Of a DNA stretch of 64,000 nt, positions 52,393-56,701 are shown piece after piece. The notes beneath the pieces are model-generated. The model saw nothing but the letters and a program-made list of their open reading frames with translations. It did no database searches and had not been told where the DNA came from. The position numbers and the translations under genes are program-made. The stretch spans positions 95,674 through 159,673 of the forward strand of contig JAJPKO010000045.1 of NCBI GenBank assembly GCA_021323655.1, written 5' to 3'. The stretch comes from Acidobacteriaceae bacterium (GTDB lineage Bacteria > Acidobacteriota > Terriglobia > Terriglobales > Acidobacteriaceae). Position 1 is the stretch's first letter; every line of letters starts with the position of its first letter.

Positions 52393-53138
52393 AATCGCTG
52401 CCTTACGATCCGCTCACGGGCAGGCCCATCGAGGACCTGGAGCAGCCCGGATATTACCCCGGTCACAAAACACTGGAGCAGAAGAACTACTGGGACGAAG
52501 CCACGCGCCAAACGGTGCTCGCCCGTGTCGTGGAGGCGCAGCCCGTTCGTTTCTTTTCCGCCGAAGAGGCGCGCATCATGGGAGCCATTGCTGCCCGGTT
52601 GGTTCCTCAGGATGACCGCAGAGAGCAGCGTCGCATTCCCATTGTTCCCGCGATAGACAAGCGTCTGTACAGGAATGAGCTGAACGGCTTCCGTTATGAA
52701 GATATGCCTCCCGATCAGGAGGCCTACCATCTCGGCCTGAAGGCCATCAATGAAATGGCACAGAAGAAATTTCACGCGCCATTGATTGAATTGACCATCC
52801 ACCAGCAGGAACTGGTCCTGAAGTCGCTGCACAATGACAAGCCAGACCCGGAACACGAAGTCTGGAAGCGTATGCCGGTGCATCGCTTCTGGACCATGAT
52901 GATGGAGGATTGCGTGACCATCTACTACTCGCATCCATGGGCGTGGGACGAGATCGGTTTCGGCGGCCCTGCCTACCCGCGGGCATACACTCGCCTCGAG
53001 AACGGACTGCCCGAGCCGTGGGAGGTAGACGAGCAGCGCTATGAATGGAGTGATCCAGTGGATTCACTCTCCGGCCTCGACCTGAAAAGCAAAGAGCTGC
53101 CACGGGTCCACGCCGCCGGGCACGGAGGCATCCACTGA
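52389..53138 (+). CDS. Gluconate 2-dehydrogenase subunit 3-like protein
   Basis: 249 residues. The central part RFFSAEEARIMGAIAARLVP followed by PAIDKRL, then FHAPLIELTIHQQELVLKSL and RFWTMMMEDCVTIYYSHPWAWDEIGFGGPAYPRAY, is the gluconate_2-dh3 family, the small helper subunit of membrane-bound GMC-type dehydrogenases. No Tat or Sec signal is visible. The ATG overlaps the membrane-protein stop by 4 bp, and its own stop overlaps the GMC start. It would support folding or electron transfer of the GMC subunit. Confidence 0.85.
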   Translation: MKSLPYDPLTGRPIEDLEQPGYYPGHKTLEQKNYWDEATRQTVLARVVEAQPVRFFSAEEARIMGAIAARLVPQDDRREQRRIPIVPAIDKRLYRNELNGFRYEDMPPDQEAYHLGLKAINEMAQKKFHAPLIELTIHQQELVLKSLHNDKPDPEHEVWKRMPVHRFWTMMMEDCVTIYYSHPWAWDEIGFGGPAYPRAYTRLENGLPEPWEVDEQRYEWSDPVDSLSGLDLKSKELPRVHAAGHGGIH

Positions 53139-54897
53139 TGCCTCCTCTGTTTGGACCATTTCGTTCGCCGAAAGATGAAAAGGTCCACCTCGGGCCGATG
53201 CAGAAGATTGGTCCGCCCCGGCGGCGCTTTGCTGATCATGAAACGGTGGATTACTGCATCGTCGGCATCGGCTCCGCAGGCGGCGTACTGATTCAGCGGC
53301 TCGCTCGCGCCGGATTCAAAGTGGTTGGCCTCGAAGCCGGTCCGTTCTGGGACTCCGAGCGCGACTGGGTGAGTGATGAGCGCGGTTCACACGAGTTGTA
53401 CTGGAACGACCTGCGCATCATTGGCGGCAAAGACCCGCTTGCTCTCGGCGCGAACAACAGCGGCAAAGGCGTAGGCGGCGGCTCGGTACACTGGGCCGCA
53501 TTCACACCGCGCTTTCATCCGTCCGATTTTCGCGTGTATACGCAGGATGGCGTTGGCGCGGACTGGCCCATGTCCTACTGGGACCTGAAGCCCTACTACG
53601 AACTGCTGGAGCGCGAGATGCCTGTGGCCGGGCCAGCATGGTTTCCCTGGGGCGATCCGCATGGGCATCCGTATGGGCCGCATCCGCTGGGCGGTATCGG
53701 CGACGTTCTCGTGCGCGGTTGCACCAGGCTCGGCATTCGCACGGTGGCTGGCGGTCCGGTGGCGATCCTCTCCGCTTCGCACGGCAACCGGCCTCACTGC
53801 ATCTATCGCGGGTTCTGTCTGCAAGGCTGCAAGGTAGGCGCAAAGGCCAGTACGCTCATCACCCATGTGCCCGATGCACTGGCGCATGGGGCAGATGTCC
53901 GTGCGCACTCCATGGCCTCGCGCATTACGCTCCGCGCCGATGGCCGCGTAAACGGAGTAGAGTACATAGACCGCGAAGGCCGGCAGCAGTTTGTGCGCGC
54001 GCGGGCGGTCATTGTGGCAGGCTATGCGATTGAAACGCCGCGCCTGCTCTTCAATTCAGCCTGTCCGGGCCACTGGCAGGGGCTGGCCAACAGCAGCGGA
54101 ACACTGGGCCGCTATCTGATGGCGCAGGCCGGAAACGTGGTTGCGGGCTGGTTCCCTGAACTGATTCGCATGTACAAATCACCGCCAGCCCACGCCCTGA
54201 GCGAAGATTTCTACGAAACCGACCCAGGCGCGGATTTGCGCGAGGCTTCGCCATTCAAACGGTTTCACCTGAGCCGATTTCATTCGCCAGGCATATGATG
54301 GCCGCCGCCGGAGCCTGGGGCTGGGGCATGCGCCGCATCATGATGGACTACAACCACTGGGCCACACTCGGCGTGCTGGGTGAAATTCTGCCCTGGCCGG
54401 ACAATCGCGTAGAGCTGGCCGACGAGAAAGACCAATACGGTCTGCCAGTGGCCAAAGTCACCTTCAACCTGCATGAGAACGATAAAAAACTGATTGAGTT
54501 CGGAAAAAACAAAGTGGCCGAAGTGCTGTGGGCCGCCGGTGCCGAGCACGTCGTACAGGAGCCGCGCTATGCACACCTGGTGGGTGCCGCGCGCATGGGC
54601 AAAGACCCGGAAACGTCGGTCGTGGACAAGTTTGGCCGCGCGCATGATGTTCCTAATCTGTTTGTATGCGACGGCAGCATTCTGCCCACGCAGGGATCGG
54701 CAAACCCCGGGCTCACGATTCAGGCGCTGGCGGCCCGCACTGCCGATTACCTGATCGCACAGGGCGAGCGCATCTTCTTCACCAATGACCGTCCGCAGGA
54801 AGAGCCAAAGATTCGCTACGACCTCAGCCCGCCGTTCACAAGGTTCAAGGGCAATCCCAGGATTGCCTGGACCGGCTTCCCAGGTGCCCGCAAATAA
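53138..54897 (+). pseudogene. GMC-family oxidoreductase, broken by a one-base frameshift
   Basis: Two frames together encode one GMC flavoprotein of about 585 residues. The first (53138-54298) holds the FAD fold IVGIGSAGGVLIQRLARAGF, GGGSVHWAAFTPR and CIYRGFCLQGCKVGAKAS. Near 54224 the coding sense moves to the next frame: RGFARGFAIQTVSPEPISFA runs straight into MMAAAGAWGWGMRRIMMDYN and the C-terminal GMC domain (RYAHLVGAARMG, CDGSILPTQGSANPGLTIQALAA). Loss of one C in the CCC run at 54223-54225 explains it. Restored, the enzyme would oxidise a sugar or sugar acid with subunit 3. Sequencing error is the main alternative. Confidence 0.85.
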
Positions 54898-55181
54898 AAG
54901 TATTTGTTTGAACGAGAATTGTCTGCCTTCTTGCTGTTGCTTTTGCTCTCCTGAGCTGTAAGCCATGTGTTTGGAAGACTTTGCATTCATAAGTAAGGGG
55001 GCACTGTACCAGGGGCGCTGCCTGAGTGCCGGGTTCTCCCCCATTCATGCACCTCTCCCGAATGCAACCAGGATTCAGGTCCGGTGGTCACGATGCTTGA
55101 ATAGACACCCGGACCCTAATGCGCTGAAGACTTTAAGAAAAATACGGGGAGGGTCGGACCCGCATCCAACCAGAGAAGGCC
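54898..55181 (+). promoter_or_regulatory. Structured leader region before the DoxX gene
   Basis: 284 bp without a large ORF. Two long-range stems are visible: GGCACT/AGTGCC with an inner CAGG/CCTG near 55003-55033, and GGTCCGG/CCGGACC near 55078-55115. Neither is followed by a T-run. The stretch also contains a short Cys-rich ORF at 54908. A ribosome site AGAGAAGG precedes the DoxX ATG. Confidence 0.3.
54908..54961 (+). CDS. Candidate Cys-rich mini-ORF upstream of DoxX
   Basis: From TTG 54908 the frame reads MNENCLPSCCCFCSPEL and stops: 5 Cys in 17 residues. There is no ribosome site, and no terminator follows. It lies in a T/C/G-rich low-complexity run, where TGC and TGT codons come easily, so chance is a serious alternative. 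I list it only because a much clearer Cys leader lies 700 bp downstream. Confidence 0.2.
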   Translation: MNENCLPSCCCFCSPEL

Positions 55182-55571
55182 ATGACTTTCGACCTTTCAC
55201 CATACGTGGATTGGAGTCTTCTTCTGCTGCGCATCATGGTGGGCATCGTCTTCGTTACCAGCGGATACGGGCACCTGAAGGCGCCGAAGCAGCGCGCGGA
55301 AAGCATCGGCCTGAGCGTCGGCTTTACCATATTTCTTGGCCTGGCTGAGCTGCTCGGCGGCATCGCCATCATCGTTGGCTTCCTGACGCAGTGGGCCGCC
55401 ATCGGACTGGTTCTGATTATGCTCGGCGCGATTTACATGAAGATCGTGAAGTGGAAGACGGGCTTCTGGGGAGAGAAGTCCTCCGGCTGGCACTACGAGC
55501 TGATGTTTATTGTGATGAACCTGGTCATCCTGTGTACAGGCGGCGGATACTTCAGTCTGATGCGCCGCTGA
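55182..55571 (+). CDS. DoxX-family membrane protein
   Basis: 129 residues with four membrane helices: LLLLRIMVGIVFVTSGYGHL, FTIFLGLAELLGGIAIIVGF, AAIGLVLIMLGAIYMKIVKW and a last one from LMFIVMNLVILCTGGGYF. The DoxX family includes quinol oxidase subunits and thiol-linked oxidation-stress membrane complexes; single DoxX genes often sit next to redox genes. Here it directly precedes the Cys-attenuated peroxiredoxin unit and follows the GMC cluster. Its exact role is unknown. Confidence 0.85.
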   Translation: MTFDLSPYVDWSLLLLRIMVGIVFVTSGYGHLKAPKQRAESIGLSVGFTIFLGLAELLGGIAIIVGFLTQWAAIGLVLIMLGAIYMKIVKWKTGFWGEKSSGWHYELMFIVMNLVILCTGGGYFSLMRR

Positions 55572-55580
55572 CTTCTGCAT

Positions 55581-55610
55581 TTGACACATTCCAGACCAAC
55601 CGTCTATTCT
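55581..55610 (+). promoter_or_regulatory. Promoter of the Cys leader-peroxiredoxin unit
   Basis: A consensus -35 TTGACA (55581-55586) and TATTCT (55605-55610), 18 bp apart. Transcription would begin near 55617, only about six bases before the leader ATG, so the leader ORF would be translated from a (nearly) leaderless mRNA. Confidence 0.7.
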
Positions 55611-55622
55611 GAAACTCAAGTT

Positions 55623-55700
55623 ATGGAACGCCTCGCTCCTACCTGCATGTGCCTCTGCTGCTGCTGCTGTTGCTGCTGCACCGTGCGGGTGTGTTCCTAG
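55623..55700 (+). CDS. Polycysteine leader peptide (attenuator)
   Basis: 25 codons: MERLAPTCMCL, then eight Cys in a row, then TVRVCS and TAG. Eleven of 25 residues are Cys, mostly TGC codons. There is no ribosome site, in keeping with the transcription start a few bases upstream. The stop is 29 bp before the terminator stem. Translation of the Cys run would depend on charged tRNA-Cys, so ribosomes would stall there when cysteine or Cys-tRNA is short. Polycysteine short ORFs acting as Cys-responsive attenuators are known from mycobacteria; I know of none described for this lineage. The peptide itself probably has no other function. Confidence 0.8.
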   Translation: MERLAPTCMCLCCCCCCCCTVRVCS

Positions 55701-55738
55701 AGCGAAGCTGGTAAGACCAGGCTCAAACGCCACCCGCA
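55684..55738 (+). promoter_or_regulatory. Antiterminator pairing of the Cys attenuator
   Basis: TGCGGGTG (55684-55691), the codons just after the Cys run, is a perfect reverse complement of CACCCGCA (55731-55738), which contains the 5' arm of the terminator. The two folds exclude each other. A ribosome stalled early in the Cys run leaves 55684-55691 free to pair; one that reaches the stop at 55698 covers it. A separate hairpin CTGGT/ACCAG (55708-55720) lies between the arms. Confidence 0.7.
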
Positions 55739-55763
55739 GAGAACCTGCTGAGGTGGTTTTTTT
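55730..55763 (+). terminator. Attenuator terminator upstream of the peroxiredoxin gene
   Basis: CCACC (55730-55734) pairs with GGTGG (55752-55756) and GCAG (55736-55739) with CTGC (55745-55748), separated by a small internal loop, followed by seven T (55757-55763). It lies between the leader peptide and the peroxiredoxin start, so it acts inside the transcription unit. Confidence 0.85.
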
Positions 55764-55793
55764 ATTTCACAGGAAGGATTGGGAAAAATCATC

Positions 55794-56450
55794 ATGTCAC
55801 TTCGCATCAATGACCTTGCACCAGACTTTACAGCCGAGACGACCCAGGGCACCATCCACTTCCATGAGTGGATTGGCGACAACTGGGCCATCTTCTTCTC
55901 CCATCCCAAGGACTTCACGCCTGTCTGCACTACTGAGCTCGGCGCTGTAGCCAGTCTTCAGAATGAATTTGAAAAGCGCGGCGTCAAGGTGCTTGGCCTC
56001 AGCGTGGATTCCGTCGAGGACCACAAGAAGTGGGCCAAGGACATTGAAGATGTTGGCGGGCACCCGGTGAAATATCCCATCGTCGGAGACCCTGAGCTGA
56101 AGATCGCAAAGCTGTATGGAATGCTGGCCTCCGATGCGGGCAACACCTCGGTCGGCCGCACCCCTGCGGACAATGCTCCCGTTCGCACGGTCTTCGTCAT
56201 CGGGCCAGACAAGCGCATCAAGCTGACGCTGTCTTATCCCATGGCGACGGGGCGCAACTTTGATGAGATTCTGCGCGTGATTGATGCTCTCCAGCTCACC
56301 ACAAAGCACAAGGTCTCGACCCCGGCAAACTGGAAGCAGGGCGAAGACATCATCATCAGCGGCGCTGTGTCCAATGAGGAAGCCAACAAGCTCTTCCCCG
56401 GCTACAAAACGGTGAAGCCCTACCTGCGCACGGCCGCACAGCCGCAGTAA
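55794..56450 (+). CDS. 1-Cys (Prx6-type) peroxiredoxin
   Basis: 218 residues. The peroxidatic Cys45 sits in HPKDFTPVCTTELG; it is the only Cys in the protein. Prx6-type features follow: GLSVDSVEDHKKW, GDPELKIAKLYGML, RTVFVIGPDKRIKLTLSYPM and the C-terminal PANWKQGEDIIISGAV dimer arm. It reduces H2O2 or organic peroxides in the cytoplasm using an outside thiol reductant. The ATG at 55794 has GGGA nine bases upstream; a TTG five codons earlier is less likely. It is controlled by the Cys-run attenuator and followed by tRNA-Cys. Confidence 0.92.
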   Translation: MSLRINDLAPDFTAETTQGTIHFHEWIGDNWAIFFSHPKDFTPVCTTELGAVASLQNEFEKRGVKVLGLSVDSVEDHKKWAKDIEDVGGHPVKYPIVGDPELKIAKLYGMLASDAGNTSVGRTPADNAPVRTVFVIGPDKRIKLTLSYPMATGRNFDEILRVIDALQLTTKHKVSTPANWKQGEDIIISGAVSNEEANKLFPGYKTVKPYLRTAAQPQ

Positions 56451-56461
56451 TCATTCATGCT

Positions 56462-56483
56462 CCGCCGCAGGCCCCTGCGGCGG
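56462..56483 (+). other. GC-rich hairpin between peroxiredoxin and tRNA-Cys genes
   Basis: CCGCCGCAGG and CCTGCGGCGG are perfect complements around a tiny loop, 11 bases after the peroxiredoxin stop. No T-run follows, so it should not terminate transcription; it may protect the mRNA 3' end or mark a processing site in a joint mRNA-tRNA transcript. Confidence 0.6.
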
Positions 56484-56491
56484 CCCCATGA

Positions 56492-56567
56492 GCACCGGTG
56501 GCGAAGTGGCTAACGCGCTGGTCTGCAAAACCAGTATTCGCGGGTTCAATTCCCGCCCGGTGCTCCA
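56492..56567 (+). tRNA. tRNA-Cys (GCA)
   Basis: Acceptor arms GCACCGG and CCGGTGC pair fully, with a U discriminator (typical of tRNA-Cys) and encoded CCA at 56565-56567. The anticodon stem CTGGT/ACCAG encloses loop CTGCAAA, giving anticodon GCA. The T arm GCGGG-TTCAATT-CCCGC is standard. Only 41 bp after the peroxiredoxin stop, with no promoter recognised between them. Confidence 0.96.
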
Positions 56568-56667
56568 ATAGTTCCCGAAGCCCATCTTTGCCCCGGAACA
56601 TTGCGCACACTGCGCGTCCGCGCTTTTTCCAACTGACCCTGAAGTATTACTTCTGAGCTGGTCTCCC

Positions 56668-56701
56668 AAAGGCCGAAAGCCAACAGCTTTCGGCCTTTTT
56701 T
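56668..56701 (+). terminator. Terminator after tRNA-Cys
   Basis: AAAGGCCGAAAGC (56668-56680) and GCTTTCGGCCTTT form a 13-bp stem with loop CAACA, followed by further T. It ends the peroxiredoxin/tRNA-Cys transcript and lies 13 bp before the convergent plsX stop. Confidence 0.93.

What the first reader, a model, noticed from the sequence alone, without database searches (positions are those of the whole stretch)
55581..55794. Polycysteine leader peptide with terminator/antiterminator switch before a peroxiredoxin gene
Seen in the sequence: promoter TTGACA-18-TATTCT, a 25-codon ORF with 11 Cys including eight in a row, a 34-nt intrinsic terminator and an 8-bp perfect alternative pairing (55684-55691 with 55731-55738) that destroys the terminator stem. 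The geometry fits ribosome-mediated attenuation: stalling in the first half of the Cys run leaves the antiterminator free, while reaching the stop codon covers it. Inference: shortage of Cys-tRNA (starvation or oxidation of cysteine) switches on a 1-Cys peroxiredoxin, a cysteine-based oxidative-stress switch. Polycysteine leaders are known in mycobacteria; a terminator-based version for a peroxiredoxin in this lineage is, to my knowledge, undescribed.
Basis: partly seen in the sequence, partly recalled or inferred. Interest (0 to 1): 0.95.

Follow-up and report, generated by a model that had tools for sequence, protein, structure and literature searches.

The report
Cysteine switch governs its own tRNA
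Acidobacteria carry a tiny gene with a run of cysteine codons and a predicted transcription stop signal in front of an antioxidant-enzyme gene and a gene for the cysteine-carrying tRNA, an arrangement that would likely let the cell make more of both when cysteine-loaded tRNA runs short.

Summary
The layout is conserved: Cys-rich leader in 106 of 134 distinct upstream regions (controls 0-1), promoter in 91 of 94, covarying antiterminator, tRNA-Cys behind 90 of those 106. A covariance model found the same element elsewhere: in 19 of 40 fetched places it stands directly before tRNA-Cys with no separate ORF between; others precede sulfur genes. Best reading: ribosome-mediated transcription attenuation that senses Cys-tRNA and controls, besides sulfur genes, a tRNA-Cys gene itself. 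The oxidative-stress reading is weaker: Prx looks like one member of a cysteine-supply regulon. There are no expression data; the response to cysteine is inferred, and a second, unattenuated tRNA-Cys exists. Listings of ten paper searches showed no precedent for leader-peptide attenuation of a tRNA gene.

The parts
55581..55610 (+). Promoter TTGACA-18-TATTCT (predicted start of RNA about 55617, so a 5' UTR of only a few nt)
   Evidence: TTGACN-17/18-TANNNT upstream of the Cys run in 91 of 94 loci (window included), 0 of 94 between terminator and prx
55623..55700 (+). Leader ORF, 25 codons, 11 Cys (regulatory codons)
   Evidence: Cys-rich leader in 106 of 134 distinct upstreams
55684..55695 (+). 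Region 2: 5' strand of the antiterminator, inside the leader after the Cys run
55700..55724 (+). Spacer hairpin GAGC..CTGGT/ACCAGGCTC inside the antiterminator
   Evidence: window fold only; covariation not tested
55726..55738 (+). Region 3: 3' strand of the antiterminator; 55731-55738 overlaps the terminator 5' arm
55730..55763 (+). Intrinsic terminator (stem-loop 55730-55756, T7 55757-55763)
55794..56450 (+). 1-Cys peroxiredoxin (AhpC-TSA + 1-cysPrx_C), 218 aa with a single Cys at 45
56492..56567 (+). tRNA-Cys (GCA), attenuator-linked type B
56668..56701 (+). Intrinsic terminator behind the tRNA

Best explanation
A poly-cysteine leader with predicted antiterminator and terminator hairpins stands in front of a peroxiredoxin gene and a tRNA-Cys gene, likely one operon, and is predicted to work as a ribosome-mediated transcription attenuator that senses charged tRNA-Cys. 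Steps: RNA polymerase starts at 55581-55610 and a ribosome translates the leader. With enough Cys-tRNA it runs to the stop codon, covers region 2, and the terminator forms before prx. When Cys-tRNA is short it would stall in the first half of the Cys run, leaving region 2 free to pair with region 3, so that transcription reads through prx and the tRNA-Cys gene. Shown: the parts, their order, their conservation and covariation. Inferred: translation, stalling, read-through, co-transcription and the physiological signal. In relatives the same element directly precedes tRNA-Cys or sulfur genes, so the operon is most likely one member of a cysteine-supply regulon in which transcription of a tRNA gene depends on that tRNA's charging.
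For: Leader: at least 4 Cys in 8 residues in 106 of 134 distinct upstreams (Prx at least 71% identical, window included), against 1 of 134 reverse complements, 1 of 268 stretches inside prx, 0 of 134 shuffles, 0 of 50 distant homologues. Promoter 91 of 94, permuted-hexamer control mean 0.1. Antiterminator on 87 aligned leaders: 77.0% of cells paired against 72.9% shuffled and at most 50.4% for slid partners; 48 double-change cells against 25.8, 0 of 500 shuffles reaching. Terminator 87.5% paired. RNA-level selection inside the peptide: in 34 leaders with an R-V-x end, Arg is CGG in 31 and Val GTG in 32, against shares of 10% and 39% in the prx genes of the same loci. tRNA-Cys follows prx in 90 of the 106 led loci and in 7 of the 28 others; the promoter pattern occurs in 0 of 96 prx-tRNA gaps. 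Same element straight before tRNA-Cys in 19 of 40 other fetched places, no ORF of 70 or more codons ending between; promoter pattern in 0 of 20 such gaps, one of them too short to hold it. Sulfur genes behind it: sulfate ABC transporter, SsuA-like, cysH above NCBIfam cut-offs; cysteine synthase-like and sulfite/nitrite reductase-like below them. Cys-rich leader before cysD in 28 of 30 loci at the 3-in-8 cut-off, 22 at 4-in-8 (no control run there). Window model (assumed footprint 11 nt ahead of the A-site codon): stall at first or middle codon of the run leaves about 0.06 terminator and 8.2 antiterminator pairs; ribosome at the stop codon gives 9.2 and 0.35.
Against: No expression, ribosome or 3'-end data. 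The occlusion model separates the states in the window but only modestly overall: terminator more than halved in 25 of 88 native against 52 of 440 region-2-shuffled cases, and 4 or more nascent antiterminator pairs in 85 of 88 native against 70 of 88 shuffled. In one search the number of pairs with a double change, 5, was reached by 74 of 500 shuffles. The helix-swap control is weak because the terminator arm hardly varies: 16.6 native against 15.5 swapped and 13.6 shuffled, native above its swap mean in 48 of 94, above all 30 shuffles in 14 of 94. A second tRNA-Cys outside the operon exists in 9 of 9 genomes that I picked, so the attenuated gene is not the only source. L050 and perhaps L175 have tRNA-Cys without a clear leader. 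Weak promoter-like sites exist: 55766-55795 in the window and 9-of-12 sites in 2 of 96 prx-tRNA gaps; 5 of those gaps hold a TTTTT. More tRNA does not by itself cure a lack of cysteine. Why Prx belongs is unexplained.
Confidence: 0.85

Rival explanations
1. The poly-Cys nascent peptide itself is the sensor: oxidation of its thiols or metal binding stalls the ribosome, so peroxide or copper/zinc would switch on Prx.
For: Prx is the first gene in the window; many thiols in one nascent chain; peptide-sensing uORFs for metals are known (recalled, no call).
Against: Outside the Cys codons the peptide varies and its conserved end is conserved as RNA; the number of Cys per leader ranges from 3 to 11 in 94 loci and runs are interrupted by Arg or Met; the element also precedes tRNA-Cys alone and sulfur genes.
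Confidence: 0.06
2. Cys-codon attenuator whose purpose is oxidative defence: loss of cysteine under oxidative stress induces Prx; tRNA-Cys is a passenger.
For: Prx is the first gene in many of the operons; in L217, L222 and L227 a second peroxiredoxin follows the first (L217 scanned).
Against: tRNA-Cys alone follows the same element in 19 of 40 other fetched places; in some relatives without the tRNA a cysteine synthase-like gene follows prx (L135, L146, L190, L032).
Confidence: 0.1
3. The hairpin is a constitutive partial terminator or an ordinary end of the upstream DoxX gene, and the Cys run is a chance product of a TGC repeat.
For: TGC repeats occur: 14 further matches of five in-frame TGY in the host genome besides the 4 of the window run, most inside long other frames.
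Against: A conserved promoter lies between DoxX and the leader, the Cys codons mix TGC and TGT, and searches show conservation beyond controls.
Confidence: 0.02

Closest known systems
uORFC-8-2 motif (cysS attenuator of Rhodobacterales; PMC8632094, section 20 read whole; other sections seen as passages or headings)
   Same: Upstream ORF with Cys codons, terminator, proposed to respond to uncharged tRNA-Cys; target raises Cys-tRNA supply.
   Different: Two tandem Cys codons, target cysS, another phylum, no tRNA gene; homology not tested.
Polycysteine leaderless short ORFs of mycobacteria (Canestrari 2020, not held; known here from passages of PMC9094748 and PMC13236596 that cite it; Actinobacterial Cys leaders in PMC1262725, passages)
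   Same: Runs of Cys codons before cysteine/sulfur genes, cysteine-responsive; the predicted 5' UTR in the window is very short too.
   Different: PMC1262725 reports no conserved terminator hairpin in Mycobacterium, PMC13236596 calls it translation attenuation; here an intrinsic terminator with covarying antiterminator, and targets include tRNA-Cys and Prx.
Classical amino-acid biosynthetic attenuators (trp, his, pheA; recalled)
   Same: Order promoter, leader with regulatory codons, 1:2 / 2:3 / 3:4 pairings.
   Different: Target is a tRNA gene, alone or behind Prx.
T-box (recalled)
   Same: Senses charging of a tRNA before a terminator.
   Different: T-box RNA binds tRNA directly, without a leader peptide; Rfam gave no such match here.
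PBC-28-3 motif upstream of AhpC-like genes (PMC8632094)
   Same: Cis element before a peroxiredoxin.
   Different: Long covarying stem with pyrimidine loop next to the start codon; the text describes no uORF or terminator.

Membership tests
Ribosome-mediated transcription attenuator | Promoter just upstream of a short leader ORF | tested here: met
   Promoter pattern 91 of 94; translation of the leader not shown, and no clear Shine-Dalgarno before the window leader
Ribosome-mediated transcription attenuator | Clustered codons of one amino acid in the leader | tested here: met
Ribosome-mediated transcription attenuator | Intrinsic terminator before the first gene | tested here: met
Ribosome-mediated transcription attenuator | Mutually exclusive antiterminator overlapping the leader end, supported by covariation | tested here: met
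Ribosome-mediated transcription attenuator | Protector pairing 1:2 when the leader is untranslated | tested here: inconclusive
   Present in the window fold; duplex stronger than shuffled mean in 71 of 91, no covariation test
Ribosome-mediated transcription attenuator | Read-through rises when the cognate charged tRNA is limiting | not testable with these tools
   needs experiment
uORFC-8-2 | Located before cysS, two tandem Cys codons | tested here: not met
   Target is prx and tRNA-Cys, eight Cys in a row
Mycobacterial polycysteine sORF | Leaderless mRNA | tested here: inconclusive
   Predicted 5' UTR a few nt in the window, but the promoter-to-Cys-run distance is bimodal, about 30 and 95 nt
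Mycobacterial polycysteine sORF | No intrinsic terminator (as PMC1262725 reports) | tested here: not met
T-box / riboswitch families of Rfam | Match to a covariance model | tested here: not met
   In 55000-56700 only the tRNA and a sub-threshold match on its antisense, at E up to 1

The most novel reading that the evidence does not exclude
A tRNA gene under leader-peptide attenuation by its own amino acid: the ribosome's wait for Cys-tRNA directly opens transcription of tRNA-Cys, a closed feedback loop on tRNA dosage, built from a chassis that Acidobacteria re-use for sulfate uptake and reduction, cysteine synthase, peroxiredoxin and even tRNA-Sec.
Probability: 0.7. Interest if true: 0.9.

Novelty: new variant of a known kind. 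Interest (0 to 1): 0.82.

Why it matters
Leader-peptide attenuation is textbook for biosynthesis and synthetase operons; here the controlled product would be the tRNA whose charging is sensed. [quoted passage not shown] It also ties a 1-Cys peroxiredoxin to cysteine supply, and gives a ready genetic test (19 loci where tRNA-Cys is the direct target).

Tried and rejected
Other poly-Cys sites in the host genome: the five-TGY pattern gave 18 matches, 4 of them the window run; for the other 14 I inspected the reading frames only. Most lie in long other frames; two short frames (L126, L133) were not followed up. Model R1 then found two further host elements, one with a Cys-rich leader before cysD, one with an Ile/Thr leader before ilvA. 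I first thought from a strict pattern that the attenuated tRNA-Cys was the only one in some genomes; a laxer pattern showed a second type in 9 of 9 genomes, so that idea was dropped. Selenocysteine calls behind prx in some relatives were checked as cloverleaves and look like real tRNA-Sec genes. Nascent-fold statistics were kept although the shuffled control weakens them.

Selection told: prx loci are 30 given, 80 (many outside Acidobacteria) and 100 that I took from the capped listing. The 94 loci are those with both a Cys-rich leader and a hairpin of -8.5 kcal/mol or better, so they are pre-selected. Six of them had a wrong automatic hairpin call (L020, L047, L170, L172, L197, L209) and one repeated another row, leaving 87 in A1. 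The 40 places were chosen by me from the best-listed R1 matches because they did not coincide with listed prx places; they are not a random sample, and at E up to 0.01 many of the 367 of 397 positive genomes rest on weak, unchecked matches.

Full report
What is there. Promoter TTGACA-18-TATTCT begins ten bases past the stop codon of a DoxX-family gene. The leader (55623-55700) reads MERLAPTCMCLCCCCCCCCTVRVCS. Region 2 (TGCGGGTG, extended to 55684-55695) pairs with region 3 (55726-55738, one base bulged), which overlaps the 5' arm of the terminator 55730-55756; a spacer hairpin (55700-55724) lies between. The full leader fold also shows the 5' half of the leader paired with region 2, the third state expected for a classical attenuator. 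The gene behind is a 218-residue peroxiredoxin with AhpC-TSA and 1-Cys Prx C-terminal domains and a single cysteine. Forty-one bases after its stop codon comes a tRNA-Cys with anticodon GCA, and a terminator follows at 56668. The promoter scan gave no site between prx and the tRNA; its only other site, 55766-55795, overlaps the prx start and is weaker.

Conservation. The Prx was found in 220 of 397 genomes of the order at E <= 1e-60 and in 80 named loci, among them Silvibacterium, Edaphobacter, Granulicella and Terriglobus at the top and many Proteobacteria further down; that the host belongs to the Acidobacteriaceae is inferred from these names. From 210 loci, 190 have distinct upstream sequence. 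Of 134 distinct upstreams with Prx at least 71% identical (two non-acidobacterial loci, L054 and L055, excluded; window included), 106 carry a short ORF with at least four Cys in eight residues, 118 with at least three. The controls give 1 and 7 of 134 (reverse complement), 1 and 10 of 268 (inside prx), 0 and 4 of 134 (shuffled), 0 and 3 of 50 (distant homologues). Some misses are technical: L159 is interrupted by N, and L194 has a C-R-C leader below the cut-off. tRNA-Cys follows within 260 nt in 90 of the 106 and in 7 of the 28 others.

The switch. Terminators mostly have the form CCCACCC...GGGTGGG-TTTT. On 87 aligned leaders the antiterminator is supported by covariation, for example C-G in 32 and T-A in 16 rows at columns 45/144, and by whole-helix replacements: L009 TGGCTGG/CCAGCCA, L021 TATGCCGG/CCGGCATA, L042 GCAGGTG/CACCTGC. 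One of the five measures, the number of pairs with a double change, is not beyond its control (74 of 500). The peptide end is conserved as nucleotides: CGG 31 of 34 and GTG 32 of 34. A simple occlusion model of the window flips between states as the ribosome moves from the first half of the Cys run to the stop codon; at the last codon of the run the terminator already forms. Across loci the same model is only moderately better than its shuffled control, and the swap control is weak.

The regulon. A covariance model built from these leaders finds the window as the best host match (2.9e-19). In 397 genomes of the order it gives many strong places. Of 40 places that I chose and fetched, 19 have leader and terminator directly followed by tRNA-Cys, 93-261 nt after the leader stop, with no ORF of 70 or more codons ending between; in L280, L291 and L295 a longer frame runs across the tRNA (L273, L274, L278, L280, L281, L284, L286, L287, L288, L291, L292, L293, L295, L297, L298, L299, L302, L309, L312). 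L294 has the tRNA but no leader by the criterion. Six have a peroxiredoxin and then tRNA-Cys (L276, L277, L282, L289, L296, L305; L276 and L282 scanned, the others by eye), one Prx then tRNA-Sec (L283), three a NirA/sulfite-nitrite reductase family protein below the curated cut-offs (L300, L304, L311; in L311 a siroheme-synthase-like gene follows), one an SsuA-like binding protein (L308). The rest are Prx alone (L275, L303, L307, by eye), other or unclear genes (L279, L290, L301, L306, L310) or a contig end (L285). In L287 and L291 a sulfate-binding protein of an ABC transporter follows the tRNA, in L287 with CysT behind it. In the prx set, four relatives without tRNA-Cys carry a cysteine synthase-like gene behind prx (L135, L146, L190, L032; best NCBIfam matches cysM/cysKM, below the cut-offs, three of them cut by the locus end) and one a ThiS-family carrier (L184). 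The host's cysD has its own Cys-rich leader, with a hairpin seen by eye; of 30 cysD loci examined 28 have such a leader at three Cys in eight, 22 at four (no control was run on this set). In a sample of 247 genomes of the phylum the model hit 18 at E <= 1e-6; 17 are in the host's family and one, near the threshold, in another class, where a leader with seven Cys in a row and a hairpin precede cysH.

Two tRNA-Cys genes. The host has a second tRNA-Cys in a Gly-Cys cluster, 53 of 76 aligned positions identical to the attenuated one. Nine of nine genomes that I picked have both types by pattern, six of the places confirmed by ARAGORN. Hence the attenuated type B looks like an extra, adjustable dose. 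In 20 loci with leader or terminator close to the tRNA (the 19 and L294) no promoter of the strict pattern lies between terminator and tRNA, one gap being too short to hold it, whereas 17 have it upstream of the leader in the counted stretch and 19 in the slightly longer printed one. In prx operons 0 of 96 gaps have the strict pattern, 2 have a 9-of-12 site and 5 a TTTTT. Read-through is therefore the likely route to type B tRNA, though promoters of another kind cannot be excluded.

Interpretation. The common denominator of the targets is production of Cys-tRNA: sulfate uptake and reduction, cysteine synthase, tRNA-Cys. The Prx in the window has one Cys in 218 residues, so it can be made when cysteine is short (in the 134 loci 62 have one, 70 two, 2 three); why it belongs is open, but its pairing with cysteine synthase in sister operons suggests a role near cysteine or sulfide chemistry (inference). 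Literature: the listings of ten searches showed no report of leader-peptide attenuation of a tRNA gene or of this Acidobacterial element; I read titles and abstract beginnings there, passages of five papers and one section of one of them, and the library lacks most subscription papers, so absence is not proof. The mechanism class is known, its target is new to my knowledge; hence 'new variant of a known kind'.

Noticed in passing
L237 (host contig C17, minus strand), about 120-215 nt before cysD: Second host Cys-rich leader, MVFAPCTLACRMDCRCCCSTSASRQGCGRCK, and a hairpin (by eye) before cysD; Cys-rich leaders before cysD in 28 of 30 loci at three Cys in eight, 22 at four.
   Followed up: partly
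L236 about 1414-1518 (host contig C60): Leader MEYLTERRVANTFAPQNSICTNIIRITFEQHAGA with Ile and Thr codons plus a similar CCACCCGC hairpin before a threonine ammonia-lyase gene (ilvA): the same chassis with other codons.
   Followed up: partly
L201, L218, L233, L283: Peroxiredoxin followed by a tRNA-Sec gene (UCA; 97-98 nt in the first three); L283 has a clear poly-Cys leader, the others weaker ones. Selenocysteine tRNA may be under the same cysteine control.
   Followed up: partly
L045, L176, L202 downstream of prx: Degenerate or truncated tRNA remnants behind prx, by eye, while leader and terminator persist.
   Followed up: no
L384: Leader with seven Cys in a row and a hairpin before cysH in another class of the phylum.
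   Followed up: partly
L279, L306, L310: Model matches with Cys-rich leaders before TonB-receptor-like genes (by eye) and a membrane protein without NCBIfam match at E 1e-30 (L310).
   Followed up: no
window 53138-54897: GMC oxidoreductase N- and C-terminal domains lie in two ORFs overlapping by four bases: split gene or frame break.
   Followed up: no
window 56492-56565, minus strand: Rfam Plastid-ycf2 match below its gathering score on the antisense of the tRNA; taken as spurious.
   Followed up: no
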